Below, one piece after another: positions 30,196 to 51,463 of a stretch of DNA of 64,000 nt. Origin of the DNA: a virus. Position numbers and translations under genes: made by a program. The stretch is from positions 1-64,000 of the IMG/VR virus record IMGVR_UViG_3300046660_000364, one strand, 5' to 3'. Position 1 is the first letter of the stretch, and each line of letters starts with the position of its first letter. A model generated the notes under the pieces. That model did no database searches. It was not told where the DNA came from and saw only the letters and a program-made list of their open reading frames with translations.

Positions 30196-31401
30196 CTAGG
30201 AATCGAGCGCCAACAGGTAGTGGTGGGCCTGGCCGCTGCGCAGCAGGGCCGCGCCATGGCGGGCGGCGGGCAGCTGGTAGCTGTCGCTGGTGAGGTTGAG
30301 CAGGGTGCCGTCGGGCAGGCCGAGCAGGATGCCGGCGCCGGTGGCGAACATCACGGCGTGCTGGCCGCTCAGCTGCGCATTGCCGAGGATCTCGCCGGCA
30401 TCGCCGCTGGTGAGCGAGCCGGGCAGCACGACGGCGTCGATCTTCTTGACCAGGGCGTTGTCGGCGAAGCTGGCGCCGGACAGGAACCAGACGGCTTTTC
30501 TGGTGCCGACGAACAGGCCGCTGTCGACCGCGGCCAGCAGCAGGATCTCGCTGGCGTCGATCGCGCGGTAGTCGCGCAGGTCGCAGTGTTCATAGGACAG
30601 CGCGCTGGTGGCGAACAGGTGTTCGCCCTGCGCGATGTAGATCCGGCCGCGATGCAGCGCCAGGCTGGTGCCGCTCGGCGGCGCGTCGAGCCACTGGGTG
30701 GCCAGCGGCAGCGAGCGCGGCCCGCCGACGTAGGTGAACTCGGCGTCCTCGACGTTGACCTCGGCGGCCTGGAACAGCGTCTCGCCGTCGGCCTGGCTCA
30801 GGTACAGGACCGCGCGCACGATGGCCGGGTCCCTTGGCACCGACCAGGTGAAGCGGATGCCGCTGCCGGCTGGCAGGTCGATGCGCTGGGCCTGGCCGCA
30901 GCCGGACTCCTGGCCGTCCTCGCGCAGCAGCGTCATGGCGAACAGGTAGACGCCGGCGGGCAGCACCCCGGTGGTGGCGCTGGCGGCGACGTCGGTCAGC
31001 TTGAGGTCGATGCCCCAGCTGCGCACGTAACCGTCCTGGTAGACCGCCGAGGACAGCCCGTTGCTGTGGTAGACGCGGTTGCCGACCGTGACGTAGGCCA
31101 TCGGGGCGTCGTCCAGGCCCATCGCCACCGCGGTCGGGACCATTTCGCGGTCGAGCCGGTACATGGTCTCGTCCTGGATATACAGGCAGTGTTCGCCGTC
31201 CGCGTAGAGGGAGTGGGCGCTGCCTGGGATCATCAGGGTCTGGCCGCTGCGGCGCGCGATGCGGCCGCTGTCGTCGATGTCGACGTTGACGGCATCAACC
31301 AGGTCGACCAGCGGGTCGTCGCGGGTGGGCAGCGCCTGCAGGCGCTCGACGGCCTCGGTATTGACGATGCCCCGGAAGCCGGTCAGGAGGACGGGTTTCA
31401 C
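30196..31401 (-). CDS. Tail/head-completion-like structural protein, 401 aa
   Basis: The start is taken as GTG at 31401, forming GTGA with the preceding gene's stop; the longer frame is Arg/Pro-rich shadow. The product begins MKPVLLTGFRGIVNTEAVERL. It shows repeated segments with YxxxGNxVYHS, YVGGPRSLP, HRGRIYIAQG and GLFVGTRKAVWFLSG, a pattern typical of beta-propeller phage stabilisation or tubular tail proteins. No enzymatic residues. Ends just before the regulatory gap with a terminator, closing the adaptor/tail transcription unit. Confidence 0.75.
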   Translation of the reverse strand: MKPVLLTGFRGIVNTEAVERLQALPTRDDPLVDLVDAVNVDIDDSGRIARRSGQTLMIPGSAHSLYADGEHCLYIQDETMYRLDREMVPTAVAMGLDDAPMAYVTVGNRVYHSNGLSSAVYQDGYVRSWGIDLKLTDVAASATTGVLPAGVYLFAMTLLREDGQESGCGQAQRIDLPAGSGIRFTWSVPRDPAIVRAVLYLSQADGETLFQAAEVNVEDAEFTYVGGPRSLPLATQWLDAPPSGTSLALHRGRIYIAQGEHLFATSALSYEHCDLRDYRAIDASEILLLAAVDSGLFVGTRKAVWFLSGASFADNALVKKIDAVVLPGSLTSGDAGEILGNAQLSGQHAVMFATGAGILLGLPDGTLLNLTSDSYQLPAARHGAALLRSGQAHHYLLALDS

Positions 31402-31535
31402 TGGACGGTCCAGAGCGCGACGAGGGACCACAGGACGGCGCCGAACAGGACCCCGCGCCAGAACGCGCACACCGGGCAGCGCGAGGACAACGGCAGGGTC
31501 ACGTCCCACAGGACGTCGAGGACCTTGTCGACCAT
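31398..31535 (-). CDS. Small membrane protein, 45 aa
   Basis: The product begins MVDKVLDVLWDV, has a CPVC pair near residues 20-23, and ends in one hydrophobic helix (about residues 24-44). The frame is also open to an ATG at 31568 that would give 56 residues and overlap the preceding gene. The stop overlaps the GTG of the next gene (GTGA). The size and single membrane span leave open a holin- or spanin-like role, but nothing proves it. Confidence 0.6.
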   Translation of the reverse strand: MVDKVLDVLWDVTLPLSSRCPVCAFWRGVLFGAVLWSLVALWTVQ

Positions 31536-31725: not shown

Positions 31726-32382
31726 TCAGTAGGTGCCGTCGTCGTCCATCTGCTCGTGGGCGATCCAGTTCTCGTCGATCGCCGAGGATTTCTTGCCGAA
31801 CTCCTGCTCGAACAGGGCCAGGCTGTCGGCGGCCTTCTTCGGGTCGTTGGCCTGCGAGTCCTGCTTGCTGTACGCGCGGTACAGCATCCAGTGGCGCAGC
31901 GAGCGGTGGAAGCGCGGAGCGATCTCGGGGCTGTCCTCGAGGCTGCGCATCTCGACCAGCGGCGTGCGCACCACCGTCAGCCACAGGCTGTCGTCGACGG
32001 CGGGGGCCGGGTACAGCATCAGGGCGCCGGTCTGGTAGTCGGGCACGAAGCCGATCGGCTGGCCGGCGGCGGCGTCCTCCCAGTACGGGTTGTGGGCGTC
32101 GAGGTCGCGCAGGGTGATGCGGCGCAGCGGGCGGTGGCCGGGCATCTTGGCGCGCCGCACGAACACGACCGCCGGGTGCAGCTGGACGATGCCGCCATCG
32201 GCCGCCAGCATGTCGATCCGCGCCACCGCGCCGCTGGAGTCGACCAGCAGGCGGGCGCGGCGGCAGGCCTCGTTCTCGGCGTCGTTGGCGAACTCCGTGA
32301 CTTCCTCGTCGCTCCACAGGTACGGCTCGGTGGCGTCGTCGGCCTCGTTGCGAAACAGCGTGATGAGGTCCTGCAGCGTCAT
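31726..32382 (-). CDS. Head-tail adaptor-like protein, 218 aa
   Basis: Begins MTLQDLITLFRNEADD, with YLWSDEEVTEFANDAENEACRRA and a helical C-terminus (HRSLRHWMLYRAYSKQD). This matches the pattern of podophage head-tail adaptor or DUF6682-like connector proteins, which dock under the portal. Its position downstream of capsid genes and before a propeller-type tail protein fits. Family assignment is from recalled sequence pattern only. Confidence 0.7.
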   Translation of the reverse strand: MTLQDLITLFRNEADDATEPYLWSDEEVTEFANDAENEACRRARLLVDSSGAVARIDMLAADGGIVQLHPAVVFVRRAKMPGHRPLRRITLRDLDAHNPYWEDAAAGQPIGFVPDYQTGALMLYPAPAVDDSLWLTVVRTPLVEMRSLEDSPEIAPRFHRSLRHWMLYRAYSKQDSQANDPKKAADSLALFEQEFGKKSSAIDENWIAHEQMDDDGTY

Positions 32383-32386
32383 AGCG

Positions 32387-33988
32387 TCACTCCTTCCAGT
32401 CGTCGTAGACGGCCTTGATGGCGTCGAAGATCGCGCCCGGGGTGATGTCGACCTGGCACTGGGCCGCCCCCGTCGTGGCGTCGGTGCTGCAGTACGACTT
32501 TCCGTAATGCAACATGTGGCATGGGTAGCAGCTGGTTCCGGCCGGGGTCAGGCTGATCGTGTTGTCCCAGTGCTTGGTCAGGTTTTCCACGCTGCTGTGC
32601 GACAGCATGACGATCTTGGCCGGTTCCGGCTCGAAGGCGACCGCGTTGAGCACGCCGGTTTCCGGGCCGAGCACCAGGTCCATCCGCTGGGCCAGGGCCA
32701 GCGTCTCGCGGATGGTCTGTTTGCCGGACTCGCGGTAGACGCGCGGTTCCAGTTCCCAGCCGCACTCGAGGATCTGGCAGGCCTCGTCGCCGGCCAGGAT
32801 GATGACGGCCTCGGGCATTTCCAGCAGCACGCGCGCGATCACGGCATCCATGTGGGGGCTGAACTTGTGCACGCTCGATCCGGCCAGCGCCCACATGATG
32901 GTGAACACCTTCGGGTTGGGCATGCCGATCATCAGCTCCTGGGGTTTGCGGGCCAGCGCGATCGAGGTCAGGAAACCCTGGGCCTTGCCGGCTTCTTCCG
33001 GGGTGGCATAGAAGCGGGCCTCGGACAGGTACGGCAGCTCGGCGAGGAAACTGGTCCACTCCAGGTAGTTCTTGTTCAGGACCACCTGGCGCACGCCCTG
33101 CGGCCACATGTGGTTGGCGCGGCCCGGCATGGCGAGCAGGGTGCCCTCGACGGACTCGGACAGCTGGACGAACTTGTCGAAGCGGCGAGCCAGGGCTTCC
33201 CAGAAGGCGGGCAGCTCGTGGTTCGGCACCAGGTCCGGGTCGAGGATCAGCCAGTCGTCGATGTGCGGGTCGTTTTTGAGGATCTCCTGGCCGGCCGGGG
33301 TGGTGTTGATGGTGATCGTATAACCCTGGCGTTTCAGTTCGGGCAGGATGTTCGACATTTGCAGCATGTCGCCGAAGCCGCCGAAGCGCGAGATGCAGCA
33401 GGTCTTGTCCGGCTTCGGGTTGTTGCAGCTCAGGCGCCAGTCGAGGCCTCCGAGCTTTTGCACCACGAGCAGGAAACTGTATTCGTTGCCGCCGTCGCGG
33501 GTCTGGTTGACGATCACGTCGACGCCGGTGCCGCTGGCGGCGGCCACGCTGGCGATGTGGGTCAGCACGTCGTCGGGGGAGAAATCGTGCTTGTGGTCGG
33601 GGTTGCTGCCGGGGGTGCCGATGCGCGGGTAGTGGTCGCGGTGCGGCAGGTACAGCACCAGGTAGCCGTCCTTTTTCAGGACGCGCCACCATTCGCGCAG
33701 GGCGGCCTCGGTGTCGACGATGTGTTCCAGCAGGTGGCTGCTGAAAATGCTGTCGCAGGTGGCGCTGCCGAAGTCGGACAGGTCGGCGCAGTCGGCCACC
33801 TTGATGTCGGGGCGGATCTTGATGCCGAACAGTTCGGTGTCGGCGCAGCTGTCGACGCCCAGCACATGCGGCAGCACCTTGCGCGGACCGCACCCGAGAT
33901 CGAGCACGGTGCCGCGCAGGTACTGCACGACGTCCCAGACCACCTTGCGGGCTTCGTCGCCCATCGGGTCATCCGGGCGCCAGGTCAA
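32387..33988 (-). CDS. Methyltransferase-glycosyltransferase fusion, 533 aa
   Basis: Residues about 10-170 are a class I SAM-dependent methyltransferase: TVLDLGCGPRKVLPHVLGVD (motif I), SSHLLEHIVD and a DGYLVLYLPH strand. From about 190 the protein becomes a GT-B glycosyltransferase of the heptosyltransferase (GT9)-like type, with CISRFGGFGDMLQMSNILPEL at its start and a GPETGVLNAVAF donor-site segment late. TTG at 33988 overlaps the previous TGA; ATG at 33964 is the alternative and gives 525 residues. It sits inside the head-tail operon, not in an early region. It may modify a virion protein or host surface sugar; substrate unknown. Confidence 0.8.
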   Translation of the reverse strand: MTWRPDDPMGDEARKVVWDVVQYLRGTVLDLGCGPRKVLPHVLGVDSCADTELFGIKIRPDIKVADCADLSDFGSATCDSIFSSHLLEHIVDTEAALREWWRVLKKDGYLVLYLPHRDHYPRIGTPGSNPDHKHDFSPDDVLTHIASVAAASGTGVDVIVNQTRDGGNEYSFLLVVQKLGGLDWRLSCNNPKPDKTCCISRFGGFGDMLQMSNILPELKRQGYTITINTTPAGQEILKNDPHIDDWLILDPDLVPNHELPAFWEALARRFDKFVQLSESVEGTLLAMPGRANHMWPQGVRQVVLNKNYLEWTSFLAELPYLSEARFYATPEEAGKAQGFLTSIALARKPQELMIGMPNPKVFTIMWALAGSSVHKFSPHMDAVIARVLLEMPEAVIILAGDEACQILECGWELEPRVYRESGKQTIRETLALAQRMDLVLGPETGVLNAVAFEPEPAKIVMLSHSSVENLTKHWDNTISLTPAGTSCYPCHMLHYGKSYCSTDATTGAAQCQVDITPGAIFDAIKAVYDDWKE

Positions 33989-34176
33989 GCTGGCTCCTGC
34001 AGCTGGGCGTCGAGCTGGTTGGCGGCGCCCTTCTTGGCCTTCGGCGCGGGGGCGGCGTCCTGCGCGACCCAGGGCTTGCCGTCGGCGGTGAAGAAGGCGC
34101 CGTCCTGCTCGTAGAAGCGGCCCTCGGTGTCGTTCACGACTTGCCCGTACGCCTTGTTGCGATCGAGGTCGGCCAT
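33985..34176 (-). CDS. Small virion-module protein, 63 aa
   Basis: Begins MADLDRNKAYGQVV and contains FYEQDGAFFTADGKPW, followed by an Ala/Lys linker and the ending ANQLDAQLQEPA. The peptide NQLDAQL also occurs in the scaffold-like protein. ATG overlaps the preceding stop (TGATG) and the stop overlaps the TTG of the methyltransferase-glycosyltransferase gene. Function unknown. Confidence 0.72.
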   Translation of the reverse strand: MADLDRNKAYGQVVNDTEGRFYEQDGAFFTADGKPWVAQDAAPAPKAKKGAANQLDAQLQEPA

Positions 34177-35112: not shown

Positions 35113-36057
35113 TTACGCGGCCGAGTCCCATTTCACGATGCGGGCGTTTTTGGCCTGGTTGTGAATCAGGCCAAAGCCACCGAGGTAGTACCACGCAATT
35201 CCGCGCGAACGGCCGTAGTCGCTCGGGATCGCACCGCGCATCTCCTCCGGGATCACGATGCCTTCTGCTACCGTGTCCGACCCGAAGAAATATGCCCAGT
35301 TCGACTGGCCGTTGCTCCAGGCCGCCTTGGCGATGTTGGTCTGCTCCACGAAGCGAACCGATTCATAACGGCCGATTTCGCCGTTAAGGATCATCTGGAA
35401 GCCGGCGTCCACGTACTGGTGCACGGCCTCCAGGTCGTTCTTCAGCTGGCGGAAGGTGGTCGGGTGCGCCAGGGAGATGTAGTCGTCGCCGGTATACGGC
35501 GGCACGTTACGTTCCTTCATGACGTCCACGATCGCCTTGACGTGGTTCTTGCCGAGGGCGACGTTGTTGGTGCCAGCGGCGGTGCCGTTGGTCGACAGCG
35601 TGACCGCGTTGGTGGAGGTGCCGCCGGTCGGGACCACGCGCAGCGGGGTCAGCGAGAACTGCGCTTCGGCCGCGATGTCGAAGGCCTTCTTCGCATCGTT
35701 TTTGAGGACCTTGGCGATGATCTCCTTGACCGGCTGCTCGGAGAGGTCATCCAGCTTGGAAGTGTACGGGACACTATTGCCAAATTCCGTCACCGTCATC
35801 GTGCCTTGCGTGATGACGAAGTTGGTAGTCGGCATAGCGGTGCCCTCGGTGAGGGTCGTGCCCTGGGTCGCTACATCGCTGTAAACGTTCCAGTGAAATG
35901 CCTCGCCGATGCCCTTGCCCTGCACCGCCGCGTCCTTGATGTCCGCGAACTGGCGGAATTTCGTGAGCGGCTGCACCGACATGCGCAGCACCTTCGAGAG
36001 GTTGGGGGACCACATGTAGCCTCCCAATGAGTTCGTCAACCAGACCTGACCTGCCAT
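35113..36057 (-). CDS. Major capsid protein, N4 gp56-like
   Basis: The 314-aa product carries features of the N4 gp56-type capsid family (HK97 fold): LRMSVQPLTKFRQFADIKDA near the N-terminus, YISLAHPTTFRQLKNDLEAV in the middle, and NGEIGRYESVRFVEQTNI shortly after. Forms the icosahedral shell. Preceded by the scaffold-like gene and followed by a terminator, the usual scaffold-capsid order. Codon use here is less extreme than in neighbours, as often seen in highly expressed capsid genes. Confidence 0.93.
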   Translation of the reverse strand: MAGQVWLTNSLGGYMWSPNLSKVLRMSVQPLTKFRQFADIKDAAVQGKGIGEAFHWNVYSDVATQGTTLTEGTAMPTTNFVITQGTMTVTEFGNSVPYTSKLDDLSEQPVKEIIAKVLKNDAKKAFDIAAEAQFSLTPLRVVPTGGTSTNAVTLSTNGTAAGTNNVALGKNHVKAIVDVMKERNVPPYTGDDYISLAHPTTFRQLKNDLEAVHQYVDAGFQMILNGEIGRYESVRFVEQTNIAKAAWSNGQSNWAYFFGSDTVAEGIVIPEEMRGAIPSDYGRSRGIAWYYLGGFGLIHNQAKNARIVKWDSAA

Positions 36058-36092: not shown

Positions 36093-37139
36093 TTAGACGC
36101 CGGCGCGCGCCGCCTTCATGGCGGCGATGATCGAGGACGCATCCTCGGCCTGCGGTTCGTTGGGCGCGGTTTTGGTGTTGATCGACGTGACGTTGTCGAT
36201 CGTTCGTTTCTGCTCCAGCTTTTGCGCTCGGACGGACGTGGTCGGTGCAGGATCTTCACGGCGGCCCGGTTCCTGTTGCGCGGTGCCCCAGCCGAATTTC
36301 GTTGCCAGCTCTCGGCTCACGTTGTCCAGCGCGGAGAAGAAGTCGATGCCTTCTTCTGCCTGCTTGCGCTGGATCTTGGCCAGGGCCAGAGACTCCATGT
36401 CGGGGTCCGCGTACATCTCGGGATAGTCGTTACGGTTCTGCGTCAATACACTCTCTACTGCGAGCTTTTGCTGCACGTGCTGCGTCACCGACTGGGCGAT
36501 CTGGTCGACGTCGAGGATGGGCGCAGGCGCTTGTGCCTGCTGCCGTCCAGCCAACATTTCATCCAGTTTGGCGAGCGCGTTATCCTCGTCGCCCTCGAAC
36601 AGGGCCTTGAGGAAGTCCTTGCGGGCGGCGACGGCGTCGACGTCCGCGGGGTTCGGGTCCATGACCTGCTGCTGCTGGAGCTGCTGCTGTTGCAGCTGGT
36701 CGTGGTACTGCTGCAGCTGCTGCTCGCGCAACAGCCGTGCCGCCTCGGCTTCCTGGGCCTCGCGCAACAGGCGCGTGGCTTCGGCGAGCCGTTTGTCGGC
36801 GGTCGAATTCTTCTGGTACTGGCGCACCAGGTCCTCCACCGGGACCTCGGCTTCCTCGCCGTCGATCTTGACCTTGACCTTGGCGGGCGCGCCGGCGCTG
36901 GCCGGGGCCGGATCAAGGGCCGGGTCGTTCAGCTGGGCGTCCAGCTGGTTCGGTGCGGGGGCGTTGGCCGGCTCGGCGATCGTCTCGGTCGGCAGTTCCC
37001 AGCCGTTCTGGGCGGCCATTTCGGCCTGGTGGCGTGCTTCCAGGGCCTCGAGGGCCTGGTCGCGCGCGGTGCGCTGCGTGGTTTCTTCTACTGCGGGTGC
37101 TGCTGCATCGTTTTGCACGTCCGATTGGATAGCGCTCAT
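36093..37139 (-). CDS. Scaffold-like capsid assembly protein, 348 aa
   Basis: Acidic, highly helical and Gln/Glu/Ala-rich. KVKVKIDGEEAEVPVEDLVRQYQK at about 92-115 is a motif of phage scaffold or capsid-assembly proteins. A long Gln-rich coiled coil follows (about 128-160). The C-terminus is basic-helical (IIAAMKAARAGV), as expected for a capsid-binding end. Lies immediately before the major capsid gene. Contains NQLDAQLNDPA, shared with the 63-aa protein. It starts its own unit after the terminator at 37178-37204. Confidence 0.85.
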   Translation of the reverse strand: MSAIQSDVQNDAAAPAVEETTQRTARDQALEALEARHQAEMAAQNGWELPTETIAEPANAPAPNQLDAQLNDPALDPAPASAGAPAKVKVKIDGEEAEVPVEDLVRQYQKNSTADKRLAEATRLLREAQEAEAARLLREQQLQQYHDQLQQQQLQQQQVMDPNPADVDAVAARKDFLKALFEGDEDNALAKLDEMLAGRQQAQAPAPILDVDQIAQSVTQHVQQKLAVESVLTQNRNDYPEMYADPDMESLALAKIQRKQAEEGIDFFSALDNVSRELATKFGWGTAQQEPGRREDPAPTTSVRAQKLEQKRTIDNVTSINTKTAPNEPQAEDASSIIAAMKAARAGV

Positions 37140-37723: not shown

Positions 37724-38025
37724 TCGCCCTCCTGGCTTTGCAGTTCGGCCTCGGCCGCCTTGCCGGCCTGGATCGCTTCATCCAGCCAGTCGCGGAAGCT
37801 GGCGGCGCGGCGCACCACCAGCTGCAGTTCGCGCACGTAGTTGGCATCGCTGGCGTCGGCTTCGCCGAGCAGCTCGAGCGCGGCCTGCTTCTCCTGCTCG
37901 GCGCGGCCGATCAGGTACTGGCCGACGGCGCCCTCGACGAAGGCCTTGACGTCCAGGCTGAACTGCACGGTGTGCAGCAGCTCGCGCACTTCCGGCGGGA
38001 ACTGCGAGAAGTCGATTTCGATCAT
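37720..38025 (-). CDS. Hypothetical helical protein, 101 aa
   Basis: Mostly helical, Glu/Ala/Leu-rich, starting MIEIDFSQFPPEVREL. Its ATG overlaps the portal stop (ATGA), so expression is tied to the portal. Possibly a portal-associated or scaffold helper; no direct evidence. Confidence 0.75.
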   Translation of the reverse strand: MIEIDFSQFPPEVRELLHTVQFSLDVKAFVEGAVGQYLIGRAEQEKQAALELLGEADASDANYVRELQLVVRRAASFRDWLDEAIQAGKAAEAELQSQEGE

Positions 38026-41000
38026 GCGTTGAAGTGCTCCACAAGTTTGTCGAAGAAGTCGCGGCCCAGCTGCTCGACAACATCAGAAGGCACGATAAAA
38101 TCGCCGCCCTGCAGGCCGACGGGTTGCATGTCGGCCGGCGCGTCCGGTGCACCTTCGGCCGGGGTGTGGAAGTGCGCCACCAGCTCCTCGAGGTAGTCCT
38201 GGCCGATCACCTGCACCACCGCGGCCGGGATCAGGTACTCGCCGCTGGAGACCTGGGCCGGCTGGGCGCCGTCAATCGTGGCCGGGATCGCGTCGGCGGT
38301 CGGGCCGCCCGGACCCTGGATCAGGCCGCCGTCGGCGTAGGCCGGCGCCTCGGGCTGCTGGCGGTTCTGGTTCTGCATGCGCTCGGCGTACTCGGGGATC
38401 GAGTTGACCGAGGCGTCGAGCTTGCCGCGGTTGTCGCCGACGAACTTCATGGCGCGCTGGGCGGCGCTGTGGATCGGCGCCTTGGCCAGCTTGTAGGCGG
38501 GGATCAGGCCGATGGCGTCACCGGCGGCGGCGCCGTACTCGCCCTTGTACAGGTCGTTGGCCACATCCAGCGCCGAGGTCACGGTGCCGGTGCCGGGCAT
38601 CAGGTCGAGCGCCAGCTTGGCCTTCGGGTACTCGTTGGCCAGCTGGTCGTAGCCGCGCGACAGGCGGCCGGGCAGCGCAGCGGCCTGCTGGAGGCCGTTG
38701 TTCACCATGCTGGTGGCGCCGTTCCAGGTCTGCTGCAGCGGGTTGACCGGGTTGGCCGGGTCGACCAGGCCGCCGTTGGCGTAGCTGTCATCCGGGTACG
38801 GCAGGCGCGGGTAGCCGGCCAGCCCCATGTTGGTCTCGTCGGTCAGGCCGTTCAGGGTGCGCGAGACCGGGTCCGGCGCTTTCAGGCCCATCTCGGCGCC
38901 GTACAGGCGGCGGTTGTCCTGCATGATGCGCAGGTGGTCGGCCAGGTCGATGCGCTGGTCCATGTCGAGCGGGCCGTAGGCGCCCATGCTCGGGATCAGG
39001 CCGCCGTTGCGGTAGGCGGCCTGGCCGATCAGGCTGGCGCCGGCGCTGTCCGGGCGGGTGGTCTGGATGCCGGCGCGCTCGCCAGTTCCCGCGGTAGCGG
39101 GAATCGGCGGCAGCGGATTCAGGGTGGTCGATGCGCCCTGTCCCGGCATGAAGGCGACCCCGGTGCGGCGGTTTTTCACGGCCTCGATCCCCAGGCCGGC
39201 GCTTGGCGCGCCCGGCATCGGGAAATTCGGGTCGATCCCGGAGGGGGTGGGCGGGCGGTAGCCGGCGGCCTTCATCAGCTCGTCGGCGATCGGGGCCACG
39301 CCCGGCACGGCGGCGATGACCTCGGCGGTCTGCATGGCCGAGAACTGCGCCTCGGACCCCTTCTTGACCGCATCGGCCGCGGTGACGCGGTCCTTGACGG
39401 CGTAGCTGGCCACCTCGGCGTCGATCTTGCGGATCTGCGCGGCGATCAGGGCCGGGTCGGCCTTCTGCGCCAGCTGCTGCTGCAGCTGCTGGACCTGGTC
39501 CTGCAGGCGCTTGACCATCGGGTCGCTGCCGTCGAAGTTGAAGAAGCGGGCGCCGTCCTTGTAACCGAGCTTGCCGAACAGCTCCTTGACGATCTCCTCG
39601 ACGTTCAGGCCCAGGTTCACGAGGCCATCGTTGGCCAGCATGTTGCCGAGTGCCGTCATGCCGTCGACGAACTGGCGCACCTGGTCGGCCGGGTTGACGG
39701 CGCCCATGCCGACGTTCACGTTGAGCGTGAACTCGTTCATCAGCTGCTCGTCGGTGATCTGGTCCATCCCGAAGCGCTGCAGGTCGGCGGTCTTGCCGCA
39801 CAGCGCGATCAGGGCGTCGTCGGTCTCGTAATACTGCTCCAGCAGCACCAGCTGGCGCAGCACCGGCTCGACCCAGGTCTCGACGAAAGTGCGCAGCTGG
39901 TAGCCGCTCACCTGGTTGGCGCCGGCGTCCAGCATCTGCATGCCGCCGACCGTCTCGTTCAGCTTGCGGTTCGATTGCACCGAGGACCCGGAGAAGGTGC
40001 CGGCGACATCATCGAAGTCCAGGTTCAGGACCTCCTGCTCTTTATAGGAGGAGCCGGTGACGTCGTTGAATTCCACCACTTTCACATCGTCGATGTCCTG
40101 CACCAGGGTGACGGAGCCGGGCACGTTCCTCGTCACGCTGCGCAGGTCGACCTGCTTGTTGCGGCGCGCGAAGTATCGCTTGTTCATGGCCAGCTTGACG
40201 TTGTCGATGCGCTGGTTGGCGACCTCGTTGATCTCGGCCTGGACGTCGCGCGTCAGGCGCGGCACCGAAGACGGATACAGCTTGTGGGTCTCCAGCACGG
40301 CGGTGCCGACCACATACGGGCGGCGGCCGTGGAAGTAGACCTCGGTGAGCGGCACCGGGTCCGACAGCAGGTGCTCGCAGCCGAGGGTGTAGTAGCAGTA
40401 GTCGACCTCGTCGACCTCGACGATGTTCTTGTGGACCCAGACGATATTGAAGTTGCCGTTGGCCTGGGTCTGGTATTTGCTGTCGGTGCGCGGCGACTCG
40501 CGCTGCAGGCGGATGGTGTCGCCGTAGGTCTTGGTGGCGCCCTGGATCGTGGACTCGGGCAGGGTTTTCCACTTGGCCTCGCCGGTCTTGGCGTCGACGT
40601 TGCGCATGCGCGCCTTGACGTCCTTCACGTACATCGGGATCAGTTCGATCACGTAGGGGCTGGTGCCGACCGGGTCGGTCCAGTCCGCGCCCGGGTCGAA
40701 GCGCAGGTTCTCGATCGGCACCAGGCGGATCTGCGGGCGGTCGATGTTCTTCTTCTCGTTGTACTGCCAGTATTGGTACGACGCCACCACGCCCACGGTC
40801 TGGGCGTCCTGGTAGGCGCCGACCAGGGTCAGGAACCAGGGGATCGACTTGGTGAGCCGGTGCTGCAGCAGCGCGCCCATGACGGCGGCCGACCCCAGCT
40901 GCGTGGGGTCGTCCTCGTCCTGCGCCGTCACCTTGAGGACGTCGTTGCTGGCAAAGAAGGCCTGGGCCGCGGCGGCCTCGTTCTTGCGGATCGTGGTGCG

Positions 41001-41219
41001 GGTCTTGGGCCGGAACAGTTTACTTCTGCCCTTGTTGGCCTCGGCCAGGTACTTCGAGCCGGCCGGGTGCTGGCCCTGGAACTGGCGCAAATCTCCCTCG
41101 ATCTGGGCGCGCACCGAGCTGTCGAACCAGTTCGAGGAGGCGCTGAAGGCGTCCCGCGCGAGGGCCACCCAGTCGGGCGTGTCTTGCGCCGGCGCGGCGG
41201 TGTTGTTCTGGTCGTCCAT
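38022..41219 (-). CDS. Portal protein with long C-terminal extension, 1065 aa
   Basis: The first 700 residues fit a podophage portal: FRPKTRTTIRKNEAAAAQAF, QYWQYNEKKNIDRPQIRLVP, NLRFDPGADWTDP, and GRRPYVVGTAVLETHKLYPSS. A Gln-rich coiled coil lies near 565-580. Portals form the dodecameric DNA channel and terminase dock. The remaining 350 residues are extra: Gly/Pro-rich linkers with repeated ANGGLV/ADGGLI segments, then two tandem copies of a module (GEYLIPAAVVQVIGQDYLEEL then GDFIVPSDVVEQLGRDFFDKL) at the very end. Follows a 118-aa gene and precedes three coupled small genes. Confidence 0.9.
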   Translation of the reverse strand: MDDQNNTAAPAQDTPDWVALARDAFSASSNWFDSSVRAQIEGDLRQFQGQHPAGSKYLAEANKGRSKLFRPKTRTTIRKNEAAAAQAFFASNDVLKVTAQDEDDPTQLGSAAVMGALLQHRLTKSIPWFLTLVGAYQDAQTVGVVASYQYWQYNEKKNIDRPQIRLVPIENLRFDPGADWTDPVGTSPYVIELIPMYVKDVKARMRNVDAKTGEAKWKTLPESTIQGATKTYGDTIRLQRESPRTDSKYQTQANGNFNIVWVHKNIVEVDEVDYCYYTLGCEHLLSDPVPLTEVYFHGRRPYVVGTAVLETHKLYPSSVPRLTRDVQAEINEVANQRIDNVKLAMNKRYFARRNKQVDLRSVTRNVPGSVTLVQDIDDVKVVEFNDVTGSSYKEQEVLNLDFDDVAGTFSGSSVQSNRKLNETVGGMQMLDAGANQVSGYQLRTFVETWVEPVLRQLVLLEQYYETDDALIALCGKTADLQRFGMDQITDEQLMNEFTLNVNVGMGAVNPADQVRQFVDGMTALGNMLANDGLVNLGLNVEEIVKELFGKLGYKDGARFFNFDGSDPMVKRLQDQVQQLQQQLAQKADPALIAAQIRKIDAEVASYAVKDRVTAADAVKKGSEAQFSAMQTAEVIAAVPGVAPIADELMKAAGYRPPTPSGIDPNFPMPGAPSAGLGIEAVKNRRTGVAFMPGQGASTTLNPLPPIPATAGTGERAGIQTTRPDSAGASLIGQAAYRNGGLIPSMGAYGPLDMDQRIDLADHLRIMQDNRRLYGAEMGLKAPDPVSRTLNGLTDETNMGLAGYPRLPYPDDSYANGGLVDPANPVNPLQQTWNGATSMVNNGLQQAAALPGRLSRGYDQLANEYPKAKLALDLMPGTGTVTSALDVANDLYKGEYGAAAGDAIGLIPAYKLAKAPIHSAAQRAMKFVGDNRGKLDASVNSIPEYAERMQNQNRQQPEAPAYADGGLIQGPGGPTADAIPATIDGAQPAQVSSGEYLIPAAVVQVIGQDYLEELVAHFHTPAEGAPDAPADMQPVGLQGGDFIVPSDVVEQLGRDFFDKLVEHFNA

Positions 41220-41839: not shown

Positions 41840-44254
41840 TCAGACGCTGCGCGGCAGGATGGCGAACTGGGGCGCCAGGCCGTAGTTCGGTTTCGTTGGG
41901 CGCGCCATGAACTTGGCCCAGGCGGTGGCGCCGCCCGGATAGCCGCTGTCGACCGCAAACGCCAGGCCCGGCTGGTAGTTGGCCGGGTAGCCGTCGGTGG
42001 AGGCGGGATAGCCGTCGATGTCGCCCGGCAGGCAGTTGGGGGAAAAGGCCAGGCGCTGCGGCGAGTTGCAGGGGTATTGCTGCTGGGCCGGGGCGACCGT
42101 GAACGCGAAGCACTCGGCCAGGGTGCCGAAGAACGGCGCGGTACTGGTGGTGCGCACGCCGAGCGCGTAGGTGCAGGCGTTCAGGTTGCAGACCGCCGGG
42201 TCGTTCATGCGGCCGACCTGGAACTTGGCCTTCCACGCAAGCAGGCGGCGCGCATCCGAATTCCCCAGCAGATCGACGCCGTGGCCGATGGCCTGGGTGA
42301 AGAAGTCGTCCATCCACGGCGCGATGCCGTTGCCGGTGCCGCCGTTGACCGGGTAGGCGATCGCGTAGCCGTTGGTGATGACGCCCAGCGCGTTGTCGTT
42401 GCCGTCGACGTAGCGGGCGACGAACCAGCTGATGTTGTTGGTGTACCAGGTCTGGAAATGCGACTTGAGCGGGTGGCCCTCGGGGGTGATGGCGGCGCAC
42501 TCGGCCAGCGTGCGCATGCTCCAGCCCTGGCCGCGCACCTGGTCGGCGCGCACATGCGCCTTCTCGAAGTCGCGGTAGTAGGGGTTGTCCTGGTAATGAT
42601 TGAAGGTGCACCAGAAGTGCAGGCCTTCCAGGTAGAAGAAATCGCCGGTGAGCAGGTACGGCAGGTAGTACAGGTCCGGCTGGTGCGAGCTGTCCGGGCC
42701 GCCCTGGGTCACGGTGGTCAGGTTCGGCAGCTTCTCGTTCTTGCCGGTGGCCGGGTTGATGCAGTCGCCGGGGTTGCCCAGCAGCGAGGAGTACGGGAAG
42801 TTGATGACCGACAGCGGGTAGCCGCGGCCCGGACCGGCGCTGTCGTCGCGCCGGCACATCGGCCAGCTGCCGCCGATGTCGGCGCTGGCCAGCATGATCG
42901 CCTTGGCCCGCTTGTCCATCGACAGCACGGTAGTGGCATGGATGTCCGGCATGATGCCGATGTCGGGGCGCCCGCCGGTGGTGCCCATGGCCGGCTGCAG
43001 GTTGCCGAAGCCCATCGGGTCGAAGCGGGTGCTGGCCATGGTCGTGACGTAGCCGTTCAGCACCGATTCCGGGATGACCACGCTCTGGTCGTAGTTCGGG
43101 ATCTGGCGGCTGCCGATCAGGTAGGCGGTGTCGTGGCGGATATGCAGGGTCGGCGCGCCGCCGGTCCAGAAGGTGCGCTTCCAGCGCGCGGTCGGGGTGT
43201 GGATCAGGCCGGTCTTGCTGTAGACCGTGGCGCCGGCGGCGTTCAGGGTGACGTCGTAGACGATGTCGGTGGTCGAGGTGTAGGCCTGGCAGTGCTCGAT
43301 CACGGCGTCGATGCGGGCCTGGCCGGTGCTGAACGCGCGCACCGAGAACTGCGCTGTCAATGTCGGGTGCCGGCCGCTCGGCCCGACGAAGGGCACGTTG
43401 AAGATGAAGTCGGAGGCCACCGGGCCGGCGAACCAGGTGTCGGGGACGACGCCGGCGCAGCTGGCGGTGTAGGTCACGCCGCTGATGACCACGCTGGCCG
43501 AGGGCAGCGATGCCGGCAGGCCGACGGCGGTCGCGCTGCCGGCGGCACTGGCGCGCTTGATCGACAGGGTCTGCGAGGCACTGGCGGCCAGGGTCGGCAG
43601 CACGCCGCAGATCATGGCGTGGCGCACCGAGCCGTCCGGGTGCAGGGCCTTGACGTTCAGCTGGGCGGCGATGCTGCTGCTGTCCGGCAGGGTCAATGTG
43701 ATCCCGGCGCCGGTCGACGGCAGGTGGCCGAGCGCGAACACGTGGCCGAGCGCGAACGGCGCATTGGCGACCGGAGTGGCCGCGGTGTTCTCGATCTTGA
43801 AGGTGGTGATCTGCGCGCCGATGGCGATCGGGGTGCCGGTGGCGGGCGGGTCGCCGGCGGCGCCGGTGGCGGCGAAGCCGATGCTGCGCTGGCCCTGGCG
43901 GCTGGCGACGGTGGCGAGCGTGGCCGGCAGGGCGCCGTTGACCGGCACGATCGCGCGGCTGACCTGGGCCTGGCTGGCGCTGGCCGTGGCGTCGGTATGG
44001 ATGCTCTGGTTCGAGAGCGCGGCTGCGGCGGCGAGGCGCTGGGCCTGGCGGGTGCCGGCGGTGACGTCCAGCAGCATCGGGATGTCGATGCGCGGGGCGT
44101 ACAGGGTCGTGTTGACGTCGCTGGTGAGCGTGCGGCCGCCGAAGCTGTAGCTCAATACCGGCGGGGCATTGAAATTCGCGCTCGGGTCAGCCATCCCGAC
44201 CTCTTCCGACCACAGGCGGTCGGAGAAGCGCGGGATGGTGCGGTCATCACTCAT
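41840..44254 (-). CDS. Large protein of unknown function, 804 aa (possible tail-associated carbohydrate-active protein)
   Basis: The N-terminal 200 residues are Ala/Thr/Ser-rich. Residues about 150-370 look beta-sandwich-like. The C-terminal half is aromatic-rich with Trp/Tyr/His and repeated helices (FYLEGLHFWCTFNHYQDNPYY, SHFQTWYTNNISWF), a pattern seen in alpha/alpha-toroid polysaccharide lyases or hydrolases. I cannot identify catalytic residues. Start overlaps the preceding small gene by 8 bases. Location at the head of the minus-strand late operon is unusual for a depolymerase. Alternative: a novel structural protein. Confidence 0.7.
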   Translation of the reverse strand: MSDDRTIPRFSDRLWSEEVGMADPSANFNAPPVLSYSFGGRTLTSDVNTTLYAPRIDIPMLLDVTAGTRQAQRLAAAAALSNQSIHTDATASASQAQVSRAIVPVNGALPATLATVASRQGQRSIGFAATGAAGDPPATGTPIAIGAQITTFKIENTAATPVANAPFALGHVFALGHLPSTGAGITLTLPDSSSIAAQLNVKALHPDGSVRHAMICGVLPTLAASASQTLSIKRASAAGSATAVGLPASLPSASVVISGVTYTASCAGVVPDTWFAGPVASDFIFNVPFVGPSGRHPTLTAQFSVRAFSTGQARIDAVIEHCQAYTSTTDIVYDVTLNAAGATVYSKTGLIHTPTARWKRTFWTGGAPTLHIRHDTAYLIGSRQIPNYDQSVVIPESVLNGYVTTMASTRFDPMGFGNLQPAMGTTGGRPDIGIMPDIHATTVLSMDKRAKAIMLASADIGGSWPMCRRDDSAGPGRGYPLSVINFPYSSLLGNPGDCINPATGKNEKLPNLTTVTQGGPDSSHQPDLYYLPYLLTGDFFYLEGLHFWCTFNHYQDNPYYRDFEKAHVRADQVRGQGWSMRTLAECAAITPEGHPLKSHFQTWYTNNISWFVARYVDGNDNALGVITNGYAIAYPVNGGTGNGIAPWMDDFFTQAIGHGVDLLGNSDARRLLAWKAKFQVGRMNDPAVCNLNACTYALGVRTTSTAPFFGTLAECFAFTVAPAQQQYPCNSPQRLAFSPNCLPGDIDGYPASTDGYPANYQPGLAFAVDSGYPGGATAWAKFMARPTKPNYGLAPQFAILPRSV

Positions 44255-48608: not shown

Positions 48609-49181
48609 TCAGGCGTGGCCGTCGAGGTATCGGTAGAGGGTCATGCGGCTGATCCCGTACTCCCTGGCCAGCGCGGCCTTGGAGATCGCCGGATCGGCAG
48701 CGCGCTGGCGCAGCTCCTGCACGGTCGCTCCGTCGAGGGTGGGCTTCCTGCCCTTGTACTTGCCCTTGCGCTTGGCGATGGCGATCCCTTCGGCCTGCCG
48801 CTCGCGGATCATGGCCCTCTCGAACTGTGCGACAGCACCCAGCAGCCCGAGCAGCAGCTCGTTCATCGGGTTGGCCTCACCCGAGAAGGTCAGGTTCTGC
48901 GCGGTGAACGTCACGGTGACACCATCCTCGGTCAGGCGGTGCACCATCAGCAGCAGATCGTGCAGGTTCCTGGCCAGGCGGTCCATGCTGTGCACGAACA
49001 GCGTGTCGCCGTCCCGCACGTAGTCCAGCATCGCCTTCAACTGCGGCCTGTTCGTCGTGCCGCCGCTGCACTTGTCCTCGAACACCTTGTCCAGCTCGAC
49101 GCCGTCCAGCTGGCGCTCCGTGTTCTGGTCCGTGGTCGACACCCGCACGTACCCGATCCGCTTCCCTGGTCCCTTGCTCAT
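48609..49181 (-). CDS. Serine recombinase (resolvase/invertase family), 190 aa
   Basis: Start at 49181 follows GAGGAGG; the longer frame is promoter DNA. YVRVSTTDQN contains Arg13 and the nucleophile Ser15. HSMDRLARN and RERQAEGIAIAKRKGKYKGRK follow, and a C-terminal helix-turn-helix (SKAALAREYGISRMTLYRYL) recognises the site. Standard small resolvase/invertase length. It cuts and rejoins DNA at a res or inversion site. I find no clear recombination sites in flanking DNA. In a phage it could resolve genome multimers, invert a fibre segment or be a moron. It has its own sigma70-like promoter. Confidence 0.92.
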   Translation of the reverse strand: MSKGPGKRIGYVRVSTTDQNTERQLDGVELDKVFEDKCSGGTTNRPQLKAMLDYVRDGDTLFVHSMDRLARNLHDLLLMVHRLTEDGVTVTFTAQNLTFSGEANPMNELLLGLLGAVAQFERAMIRERQAEGIAIAKRKGKYKGRKPTLDGATVQELRQRAADPAISKAALAREYGISRMTLYRYLDGHA

Positions 49182-49202
49182 GGCTACCCTCCTCGGTGGT
49201 TG

Positions 49203-49241
49203 TGTACCACTAGAGTGTAGACCACAAGCGCATAGTGTCAA
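49203..49241 (-). promoter_or_regulatory. Sigma70-like promoter with direct repeats for the recombinase gene
   Basis: Reading leftward: TTGACA (49241-49236), 16-nt spacer, TACACT (49219-49214), then the recombinase ribosome site. On the plus strand GTGTACCAC and GTGTAGACCAC form a direct repeat over the -10 element, suggesting an autoregulatory operator. Confidence 0.55.
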
Positions 49242-49294: not shown

Positions 49295-49320
49295 TAACAC
49301 ATGAATGTACCCATGTGTTA
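49295..49320. other. 9-bp inverted repeat at the terminase stop codon
   Basis: TAACACATG (49295-49303) and CATGTGTTA (49312-49320) are exact complements; the TerL stop lies in one arm. No T run follows. Possible operator or transcript-end hairpin. Confidence 0.45.
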
Positions 49321-50934
49321 TACCCCGTCCGCGTAGGTTTCCGGTTCCAGGGCACGCTCGTCGATGATGATCGGCGGGACCGGGGACATGTCGTACAGGC
49401 GGCTGGTCGCGTCGATGAGATCCTTCTTGGAGGAGAAGGGATAGGTCAGGTATTCCTCAAGGAAACCTTTGTTGAGCGAGTACAGGTTGCCTTCGTGGTC
49501 GCGGCGCATGATCGGTTTGAAGATGCGGAAGGCCTGCCCCTGTTCCTTGATGCGGCGCTGGTTCGCGGTCTCGCCCTGCACCACCGCGGCCAAGTAGAAC
49601 CTGCGCGAGATGAAGTCGGGCTGGAGCCTTTGCACCCTGTCGTCCTTGGCCTGGGCACCGTCGGAGGTCCAGGCCAGCTCGACGATCTCGAAGGCTTCCT
49701 TGTCGCGTTGCATCTGCTCCTCGAAATACTCCAGGTCGCTCTGCATGCCATATCGCTCGTAGCCGATGTAGACGGCCTGCACACCGGGCTGGGCCGTCCA
49801 GTACCGCCGCAGCCCTTTGAGCGCCTCCCAGCGTTCCCGGAGGCCCATTTTGTGCCGGTATCCGTCCAGCAGGTAGCGGTTGCCGCCGCTGTCGACGCCG
49901 ACCACGGCCATGGCGGTGTTGTCCGACCCCTTCTTCTTCGAGTTGGCCGGGTCGCACATGATGTACACGTTCAATGTGGCCGGCCTGATGTCGATGAACG
50001 AGAGCCATTCCTTCTTGAACATGGCCTCGTTGCCGGCGGCAGGATTCATCAGCTGCTGGCAGGCAATCGTCGCGGGACCCTGGGCCAGCTTCTTCGCCTC
50101 CCACGCCTCCTGGTTGAGGAACACCGGCGTGCCGTTCGGCGTGCCGTCCACCGTGGCAGGGTACAGGCGCACCGTCAGGATCTTGCGGTCGATGATCTCC
50201 TGATATGTATCCTGGAAACTGTAACGTGTCCCAACGTGCCATGCACGGACCTTGCCGTCCTCGCCCCTCGCGCCCAGGTTGTCGCTGAGTTCCCACGCGC
50301 TGGTGGTTTTGTTGACCTGATCCGGCGTGCTGACGGACTCGCGGGTGACGACGTCGTCATAGACGCGCAGCAGAAAGTGCGCGCCGGTGGGTTGCCCATC
50401 GACAAGGCCGTGGCTCTCGACAGTCGCTTCTTTGGGATTTGATTTCCTGCATACAACAATCCCTTTCTCCTCACTCCACTTGGGGGATTGCGCCCTGGGG
50501 TCAGCGTAGAAGATGTTGGGGTAGGTCGCCTGTAGATCCTTGTTGGCCTCAAGCTCCTGCTTGATCTGCAACATGAATTTCCGGGCCACCGGCTTGGTAT
50601 GCGAGAAGATCCCGATCGTGATCTCGGGGTCCTTGATGATCTCCTGGATGATGCCGGCGAAGGTAATGATCGTGCTCTTGTAATGCTCGCGTGCCCATAG
50701 ATCCAGGCATCCATCGGGCTTGGCCTCGACCTCGCGGCAGCGTGCGTACAGCCAGGGGTGGATCGCGTCGAGCCGGTGCAGCAGGCGCGTGAGCAGGTAG
50801 AAGCGGTCATGCCTGCCGAGCCACGCCTTGCCCTCCATGCCGTACTGGCTCTCGATCACCTCCCACAGGTCCGCCACGGCCTCGAAGGGGGCGGCGTGCA
50901 GGGTGGTGCTGAATTCGTCAGGCAGGGACAGCAC
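49318..50934 (-). CDS. Terminase large subunit
   Basis: GTG at 50934 is preferred because the residues before it are atypical and lie within the TerS gene; ATG at 50994 (558 aa) is the alternative. [14 protein letters not shown] is an atypical Walker [10 protein letters not shown] the Walker B, and [18 protein letters not shown] starts the RNase H-like nuclease with its first Asp. Ends EPETYADGV. TerL packages DNA using ATP and cuts concatemers. Overlaps TerS, followed by the recombinase gene, and separated from the portal by a rightward accessory island. Confidence 0.9.
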
Positions 50935-51463
50935 TGGTCCCCACCGGCTGTTGCAGACGCTTCTTGAACGCGGCCCGCAGCTCGTCGAATCCATCGCTCA
51001 CGGCGACGGTGACATTGGTGCTGCTGTCCTCGGGTTCGTCCAGCTCGCGGATCTTGCGGATCGTCTCGACGGCCAGCTTGTTCGCCTCGCAGATGGTCTT
51101 GACATCTTTGGGGTGGTCGACGCTGTCCACCATCGTGAGCAGCTTGTCCATCGCCTTGCGGGCCACCGCGAGACCAGTCGTCATGTCCTTCACATCCTGG
51201 CTGGCCTCATCCACCTGGATCTGACGAATCGCCTCGTCACTCGTCAGTGCGTTCGTCACCTGTTCGTCAAGCGATACGCCCGACATTGCTTCCCGGACAA
51301 GTTCGCGCTTAATATCGCTGGTGCCTTTGATCCAGCCCTGCTTCTTGGCGTACCTGCGCAGGGTCGGTTCGGGGATCGCGTGCTTGGTGGCCAGGGCGTT
51401 GATGCTGTACCCGCCTGCCGCGTAGTCGATCTCCGCAGCGGCGAAATCGTATGGGGTGGTCAT
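50918..51463 (-). CDS. Terminase small subunit
   Basis: Starts [21 protein letters not shown] and has an N-terminal helix-turn-helix ([25 protein letters not shown]) followed by long helices for oligomerisation, as in TerS proteins that bind the pac/cos site. 181 aa, standard. Overlaps TerL. Divergent from the RadC-like gene. Confidence 0.85.

What the first reader, a model, noticed from the sequence alone, without database searches (positions are those of the whole stretch)
32387..33988. Methyltransferase fused to a heptosyltransferase-like glycosyltransferase within the head operon
Gene carries a class I methyltransferase (DLGCGPRK) and a GT-B domain in one chain, expressed with capsid and adaptor genes. 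Sugar transfer plus methylation of a virion protein or of host LPS at late times would be an uncommon decoration or exclusion system.
Basis: partly seen in the sequence, partly recalled or inferred. Interest (0 to 1): 0.62.

Follow-up and report, generated by a model that had tools for sequence, protein, structure and literature searches.

The report
Phage capsid-linked methyltransferase–glycosyltransferase fusion enzyme
Hundreds of uncultured bacterial viruses, of two unrelated kinds, carry next to their capsid gene an enzyme that probably attaches a sugar and, in most of them, methylates it; the virus particle is the likeliest target, but no one has tested this.

Summary
Minus strand 32387-33988 encodes 533 aa (TTG start): a class I methyltransferase (Methyltransf_11, 44.7 bits) joined to a GT-B glycosyltransferase. 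AlphaFold pLDDT is 92.7. The two halves match SAM methyltransferases (Z 16.7) and GT9 heptosyltransferases (Z 23.9). Catalytic positions of both halves are conserved. The gene overlaps the upstream gene by 4 nt and ends 4 nt before the head adaptor gene. It is not unusual in uncultured phages: more than 200 relatives in IMG/VR, plus prophages in isolates such as Aromatoleum and Paraburkholderia, but none in 50,697 phage records. It lies 3' of the major capsid gene in two unrelated head modules: podophage type (as here) and lambda/HK97-like siphophages, where it usually directly follows the protease-capsid gene. The glycosyltransferase is the constant part: its catalytic residues and four cysteines are invariant in 125/125, while the methyltransferase is decayed in 15 and absent in 10. 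Other glycan enzymes (TylF, FkbM, GT2, GT4, sulfotransferase) sometimes join the slot. Best reading: late decoration of the virion with a (methylated) sugar. LPS modification is less likely but not excluded. Donor, acceptor and activity are untested.

The parts
32387..33988 (-). methyltransferase-glycosyltransferase fusion gene, 533 aa, TTG start (ATG at 33964 also possible)
33440..33988 (-). N-terminal class I SAM methyltransferase domain
   Evidence: Methyltransf_11 44.7 bits; model residues 1-173 align to 3dli_A Z 16.7, rmsd 2.6, 156 aligned
33887..33901 (-). SAM motif I, DLGCG (model residues 22-26)
   Evidence: D22 and G24 60/60, G26 59/60
33581..33604 (-). NPDHKHDF motif (model residues 121-128)
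   Evidence: 60/60 invariant in alignment A1; lost or altered in most type-B relatives
32387..33439 (-). C-terminal GT-B, GT9-like glycosyltransferase domain
   Evidence: 3tov_B Z 23.9, rmsd 4.0, 291 aligned; 1psw Z 22.7; hhalign to E. coli GT9s 92.6%, E 4.6e-7
33368..33388 (-). RFGGFGD motif; D199 aligns with the GD aspartate of WaaF/WaaC
   Evidence: D199 125/125 invariant; hhalign column
32864..32866 (-). K367, aligned with the lysine of the KRWP/KHWP motif of WaaF/WaaC
   Evidence: 125/125
32654..32662 (-). E-T-G (435-437), matching D-(S/T)-G of WaaF/WaaC
   Evidence: E435 125/125
32456..32530 (-). four invariant cysteines C479, C482, C492, C503
   Evidence: 125/125 each; similar clusters also in cellular GT9s
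33985..34176 (-). small gene directly upstream (LDRxKPYGxVxG family), 4-nt TTGA overlap
   Evidence: family in 122 of the loci scanned, also in relatives lacking the GT; junction
31726..32382 (-). head-tail structural protein (Ad3-like), start 4 nt after the fusion gene
   Evidence: phrog_399 2.7e-37; order as in Vibrio phage 1.232.O, Ad3 before Hc3
30196..31470 (-). head closure Hc3
   Evidence: phrog_8040 1.5e-52
35113..36057 (-). major capsid protein
   Evidence: phrog_1357 1.7e-23; 56% identical to the MCP of Vibrio phages
36093..37139 (-). scaffold-like gene between portal and capsid genes
   Evidence: position; conserved in 79 of 106 loci; no family match
38022..41219 (-). portal protein, 1065 aa with a long C-terminal extension
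   Evidence: phrog_1216 3e-23
49318..50994 (-). large terminase subunit
   Evidence: phrog_38 3.6e-44

Best explanation
A two-domain glycan-modifying enzyme made late with the head proteins. The GT9-like half (catalytic base D199, donor-site K367 and E435) moves a sugar, plausibly ADP-heptose taken from the host, onto a virion protein, most likely the capsid or a small head protein made next to it. The fused methyltransferase uses SAM to methylate that sugar, or the same acceptor, capping it. Shown here: the two folds, the conserved catalytic positions, gene junctions that imply translational coupling to head genes, and location 3' of the capsid gene in two unrelated phage lineages. Inferred: that both halves are active, the donor, the acceptor, the methylation site, and the benefit (shielding or stability of the particle).
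For: High-confidence model of both domains; GT9 and class I methyltransferase matches. Catalytic residues and four Cys invariant in 125/125 GT domains, including those whose methyltransferase has decayed. Same-strand capsid gene upstream in 88 of 106 loci. In a capsid-anchored sample, 52 of 70 loci carry it and only 3 with >=4 kb downstream lack it. In an unrelated lambda/HK97-like head module (TerL-portal-protease/MCP-enzyme-Hc1-tail terminator) it follows the MCP in 67 loci, mostly within 0-300 nt. The two capsid proteins show no significant BLAST similarity. Overlapping or 4-nt junctions with head genes. Glycan enzymes share the slot in some phages: TylF, FkbM, GT2, GT4, sulfotransferase. 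ADP-heptose synthase present in 16 of 17 distinct host genomes. Precedent: mycobacteriophages glycosylate capsid and tail tube with their own GTs (PMC12363180).
Against: No glycan, methylation or activity has been measured. GT9 enzymes are best known for LPS core. The slot may be just a tolerated insertion site for late-expressed cargo; one contig (L284) has the gene between TerL and portal. The two lineages count as about two independent placements, not hundreds. Cultured relatives lack the gene, so it is not needed to build such a capsid. No acceptor could be picked out: the adjacent small gene also occurs without the GT.
Confidence: 0.55

Rival explanations
1. The enzyme adds and methylates a sugar on host LPS core late in infection or in induced cells, hiding the receptor so that released particles do not stick to debris or re-infect dying cells.
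For: GT9 is the LPS heptosyltransferase family; structure closest to GT9/WaaF; hosts that could be named are largely diderm and 16 of 17 distinct host genomes have the ADP-heptose pathway. The four-Cys cluster also occurs in cellular GT9s of the same hosts.
Against: Directly next to the capsid gene in two unrelated head modules; coupled to head genes, so expression is expected late; no LPS genes nearby. Diderm hosts with heptose are the default among those sampled, so that point discriminates weakly.
Confidence: 0.22
2. The enzyme works on another small molecule or polymer (for instance phage DNA, or an intermediate of a longer phage glycan built by neighbouring GTs), with the head operon only supplying late expression.
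For: Phage GT-B enzymes can glucosylate DNA (established knowledge of T4); variable glycan cassettes in the slot.
Against: GT9-type fold and motifs rather than the DNA glucosyltransferase families (absence of those from the list is not proof); no base-modification genes were looked for or seen near it.
Confidence: 0.13
3. Passenger cargo without a virion role that persists because the slot between capsid and adaptor genes tolerates insertions.
For: Homing-endonuclease-like ORFs also occupy the slot in some relatives (L012, L026, L141); a few relatives lack the gene.
Against: GT catalytic residues invariant across 125 diverse sequences; conserved adjacency in two lineages.
Confidence: 0.1

Closest known systems
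GT9 heptosyltransferases (WaaF/RfaF, WaaC/RfaC; Pfam PF01075)
   Same: GT-B fold (Z about 20-24), GD aspartate, lysine and D/E-(S/T)-G positions align; four-Cys cluster shared with many cellular GT9s
   Different: 12-15% identity; E instead of D at 435; fused to a methyltransferase; lies in a phage head operon, not an LPS cluster
Bacterial autotransporter heptosyltransferases (TibC/AAH)
   Same: GT9-like fold (4rap_J Z 20.2); four C-terminal cysteines spaced C-x2-C-x9-C-x10-C against Cys339/342/358/370 in TibC (PMC4358343); TibC acts on protein
   Different: methyltransferase in place of the N-terminal beta-barrel; no autotransporter nearby; ring assembly untested; cysteines are not specific to this family
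Mycobacteriophage virion glycosyltransferases (Che8 gp110, Corndog gp38)
   Same: phage-encoded GT that decorates the particle (precedent in PMC12363180)
   Different: no sequence or structure link tested; hosts are mycobacteria; not known to be fused to a methyltransferase (my knowledge, not checked)
Uncultured Caudovirales phage RfaF-like protein A0A6J7WHE7 (BFVD)
   Same: best viral structural match to the GT half (E 6.5e-14, TMt 0.76)
   Different: 296 aa, GT alone, function unknown

Membership tests
Class I SAM methyltransferase (Methyltransf_11, PF08241) | profile match above the curated cut-off | tested here: met
   44.7 bits against 21.2; 60 of 60 relatives match
Class I SAM methyltransferase (Methyltransf_11, PF08241) | SAM motif I and the acidic residue after strand 2 | tested here: met
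   DLGCG; D22 and G24 60/60, D38 59/60
Class I SAM methyltransferase (Methyltransf_11, PF08241) | methyl transfer activity | not testable with these tools
   needs assay
GT9 heptosyltransferase (PF01075) | GT-B fold of the GT9 type | tested here: met
   3tov_B Z 23.9 rmsd 4.0 over 291; 1psw Z 22.7 rmsd 3.9 over 276
GT9 heptosyltransferase (PF01075) | profile match above the curated cut-off | tested here: inconclusive
   no match for the window protein at E<=1; 28 of 60 relatives match at E<=0.1, best 6.8e-8
GT9 heptosyltransferase (PF01075) | catalytic Asp in the GD motif and conserved Lys | tested here: met
   D199 and K367, 125/125; aligned by hhalign to WaaF
GT9 heptosyltransferase (PF01075) | Asp of the D-(S/T)-G motif | tested here: inconclusive
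   conservative replacement, E435 in 125/125
GT9 heptosyltransferase (PF01075) | ADP-heptose as donor | not testable with these tools
   host pathway present in 16 of 17 distinct genomes, which is only compatible
Bacterial autotransporter heptosyltransferase (TibC) | four-Cys iron-finger motif | tested here: inconclusive
   four invariant Cys, but cellular GT9s of the hosts have a similar cluster; metal binding untested
Bacterial autotransporter heptosyltransferase (TibC) | N-terminal beta-barrel domain | tested here: not met
   a methyltransferase occupies the N-terminus
Bacterial autotransporter heptosyltransferase (TibC) | dodecameric ring; autotransporter substrate | not testable with these tools
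   needs biochemistry
Phage virion-glycosylating GT (Che8/Corndog type) | glycan on virion proteins that depends on the gene | not testable with these tools
   needs MS of virions

The most novel reading that the evidence does not exclude
A mobile capsid-decorating enzyme: one polypeptide installs and methylates a heptose-type sugar on the major capsid protein, and its gene has been recruited next to the capsid gene in at least two unrelated phage lineages, with further glycan enzymes added or the methyltransferase discarded as the glycan changes.
Probability: 0.35. Interest if true: 0.78.

Novelty: new variant of a known kind. Interest (0 to 1): 0.6.

Why it matters
Virion glycosylation is documented in a few mycobacteriophages; whether phages of Gram-negative bacteria commonly do it is open. 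This family is widespread in uncultured phages, absent from the cultured collection searched, and present as prophages in cultured Paraburkholderia, Aromatoleum and Pseudothauera (the last with a decayed methyltransferase half), so the question can be tested directly. Natural variants (fused, decayed, GT alone, split) give a ready comparison of what the methyl group adds. If true, it offers a sugar-tagging enzyme tied to capsid assembly.

Tried and rejected
Four-Cys cluster as proof of TibC-type protein glycosylation: rejected, because GT9s of the host bacteria carry a similar cluster, while E. coli WaaC and WaaF lack it. Upstream small gene as the acceptor: not supported, since it occurs in relatives lacking the GT (L130, L154, PTXU04, Vibrio phage). 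Query with the divergent L106 protein found no viral relative. Homologues in phage records: only methyltransferase-type matches for the whole protein, none for the GT half. Sequence search of the GT half in PDB gave only a weak 3tov hit (E 0.08) among chance hits, so structure and hhalign carry that point. Literature searches for a phage heptosyltransferase-methyltransferase fusion returned nothing relevant; the library lacks most subscription papers, and the mycobacteriophage glycosylation paper itself was not held. My first scoring put the Paraburkholderia pair (NPDHRHDF) among the decayed; recoded as intact. The 11th 'GT alone' sequence, L141, is a split gene, not a true GT-only one.

Full report
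The gene. On the minus strand, 32387-33988 is an open frame of 533 codons. Its TTG start lines up with the M-x-W start of relatives. The stop of the upstream small gene overlaps the start (TTGA), with CAGGAG just before. The gene ends 4 nt ahead of the ATG of the next head gene, whose AAGGAG lies inside the end of this one. Upstream in the same direction are terminase, portal, a scaffold-like gene and the major capsid gene; downstream come an Ad3-like structural protein and Hc3. The record is a 66.2-kb uncultured virus contig.

The two halves. The N-terminal half is a class I methyltransferase by profile and structure (Z 16.7 to 3dli_A). The C-terminal half escapes Pfam in this protein, but 28 of 60 relatives match Glyco_transf_9. 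An AlphaFold model from 60 relatives has mean pLDDT 92.7 and pTM 0.87, and its C-terminal half matches GT9 enzymes with Z 19-24. A profile comparison with E. coli WaaF, WaaC and WaaU gives 92.6% and places D199, K367 and E435 on their GD aspartate, KxWP lysine and D-(S/T)-G motif. All three, and four C-terminal cysteines, are invariant in 125 distinct sequences. The methyltransferase keeps D22, G24 and the NPDHKHDF motif in all 60 aligned relatives.

How common. A first scan of IMG/VR found 207 coding relatives, a scan with a siphophage-type query 205, and one with a GT-only query 94; these overlap to an unknown extent. None of 50,697 phage records holds the fusion or its GT half. In bacterial genome contigs 26 loci were found, including Aromatoleum, Paraburkholderia (two), Pseudothauera and Zoogloea. 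In a draw of 398 Pseudomonadota genomes, 9 had it, 3 of them already known, including the genome on which the draw was centred, so the rate is rough.

Where it sits. Same-strand capsid gene upstream: 88 of 106 loci. Starting instead from the capsid gene, 52 of 70 new loci carry the GT downstream, 3 with at least 4 kb of downstream sequence lack it, and 15 are shorter; two of those 15 (L155, L156) have the Ad3 gene after the capsid gene and no GT between, and so lack it as well. In L097, L101, L102 and L104, and in many IMG/VR contigs, the gene lies in a lambda/HK97-like module: terminase, portal, protease-capsid fusion, this gene, Hc1, tail terminator, tape measure. The two capsid proteins share no significant BLAST similarity. 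Across 153 further loci, the nearest capsid gene upstream was of the siphophage type in 67 and of the podophage type in 52; 24 were cut too short and 10 had no hit. Several of those 10 show capsid-like ORFs by eye; one, L284, has the gene between terminase and portal. These are many contigs but about two independent placements.

What varies. Of 125 distinct GT domains, 99 have an intact fused methyltransferase, 15 a decayed one and 11 none. One of the 11 (L141) is really a gene split by a GIY-YIG-like ORF (identified by eye; no Pfam hit) exactly between the halves, with both halves intact, so 10 are GT alone. On the GT tree the decayed state falls in several separate lineages (at least six changes forced by well-supported branches under the first coding; about five after recoding the Paraburkholderia pair), while GT residues do not change. 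A simple reading is that the sugar transfer is the core function and methylation an accessory. In some phages the slot next to the capsid gene also holds TylF-type methyltransferases (10 loci), GT2, FkbM, an MptE-like protein, or, in L075, GT4, GT2, a methyltransferase and a GT1-sulfotransferase fusion. This looks like a glycan-modification island inside head operons.

Function. I favour late decoration of the virion with a methylated sugar (0.55). LPS modification (0.22) shares the enzyme family but explains less well the attachment to capsid genes in two lineages. Host genomes with the prophage nearly all have the ADP-heptose pathway (16 of 17 distinct genomes), which is compatible with both. 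The four cysteines do not separate the two, because cellular GT9s in these hosts have a similar cluster. Phage virion glycosylation has precedent in mycobacteriophages (PMC12363180), and GT9-type transfer to protein in TibC (PMC4358343). Shown: folds, conserved catalytic positions, gene junctions, placement. Inferred: activity, donor, acceptor, order of steps, benefit.

Noticed in passing
L075:2484-6742: Run of glycan genes between the capsid gene and the fusion gene: GT4, GT2, a methyltransferase and a GT1-sulfotransferase fusion.
   Followed up: partly
L141:3915-4565: GIY-YIG-like ORF splits the fusion gene exactly between methyltransferase and glycosyltransferase; both halves remain open, the GT with its own ATG. 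No Pfam match at E<=0.001, so the name rests on sequence appearance.
   Followed up: partly
L284:5408-7461: Fusion gene and a second methyltransferase-like ORF lie between terminase and portal rather than after the capsid gene.
   Followed up: no
L091, L092, L093, L098, L099 (fusion gene at about 10001-11500 in L091): Magnetococcales prophages carry a version with SAM motif I intact but the NPDHKHDF motif lost, as a separate clade on the GT tree.
   Followed up: partly
window 38022-41219: Portal protein of 1065 aa; cultured relatives match only about residues 17-560, leaving a C-terminal extension of some 500 aa without a match there.
   Followed up: no
window 41840-44254: 804-aa ORF between terminase and portal genes with no Pfam or PHROG match.
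   Followed up: no
window 60686-63529: 947-aa protein with a concanavalin A-like lectin domain (Laminin_G_3, 1.9e-21) and matches to baseplate and structural families.
   Followed up: no
window 48609-49241: Serine resolvase (PF00239, 3.2e-37) next to the terminase gene.
   Followed up: no
L073:2088-2642 and 38 other loci, early gene after the capsid gene: A small Ser/Thr/Ala-rich protein family (39 loci in one cluster) 3' of the capsid gene; a candidate decoration protein and possible sugar acceptor.
   Followed up: no
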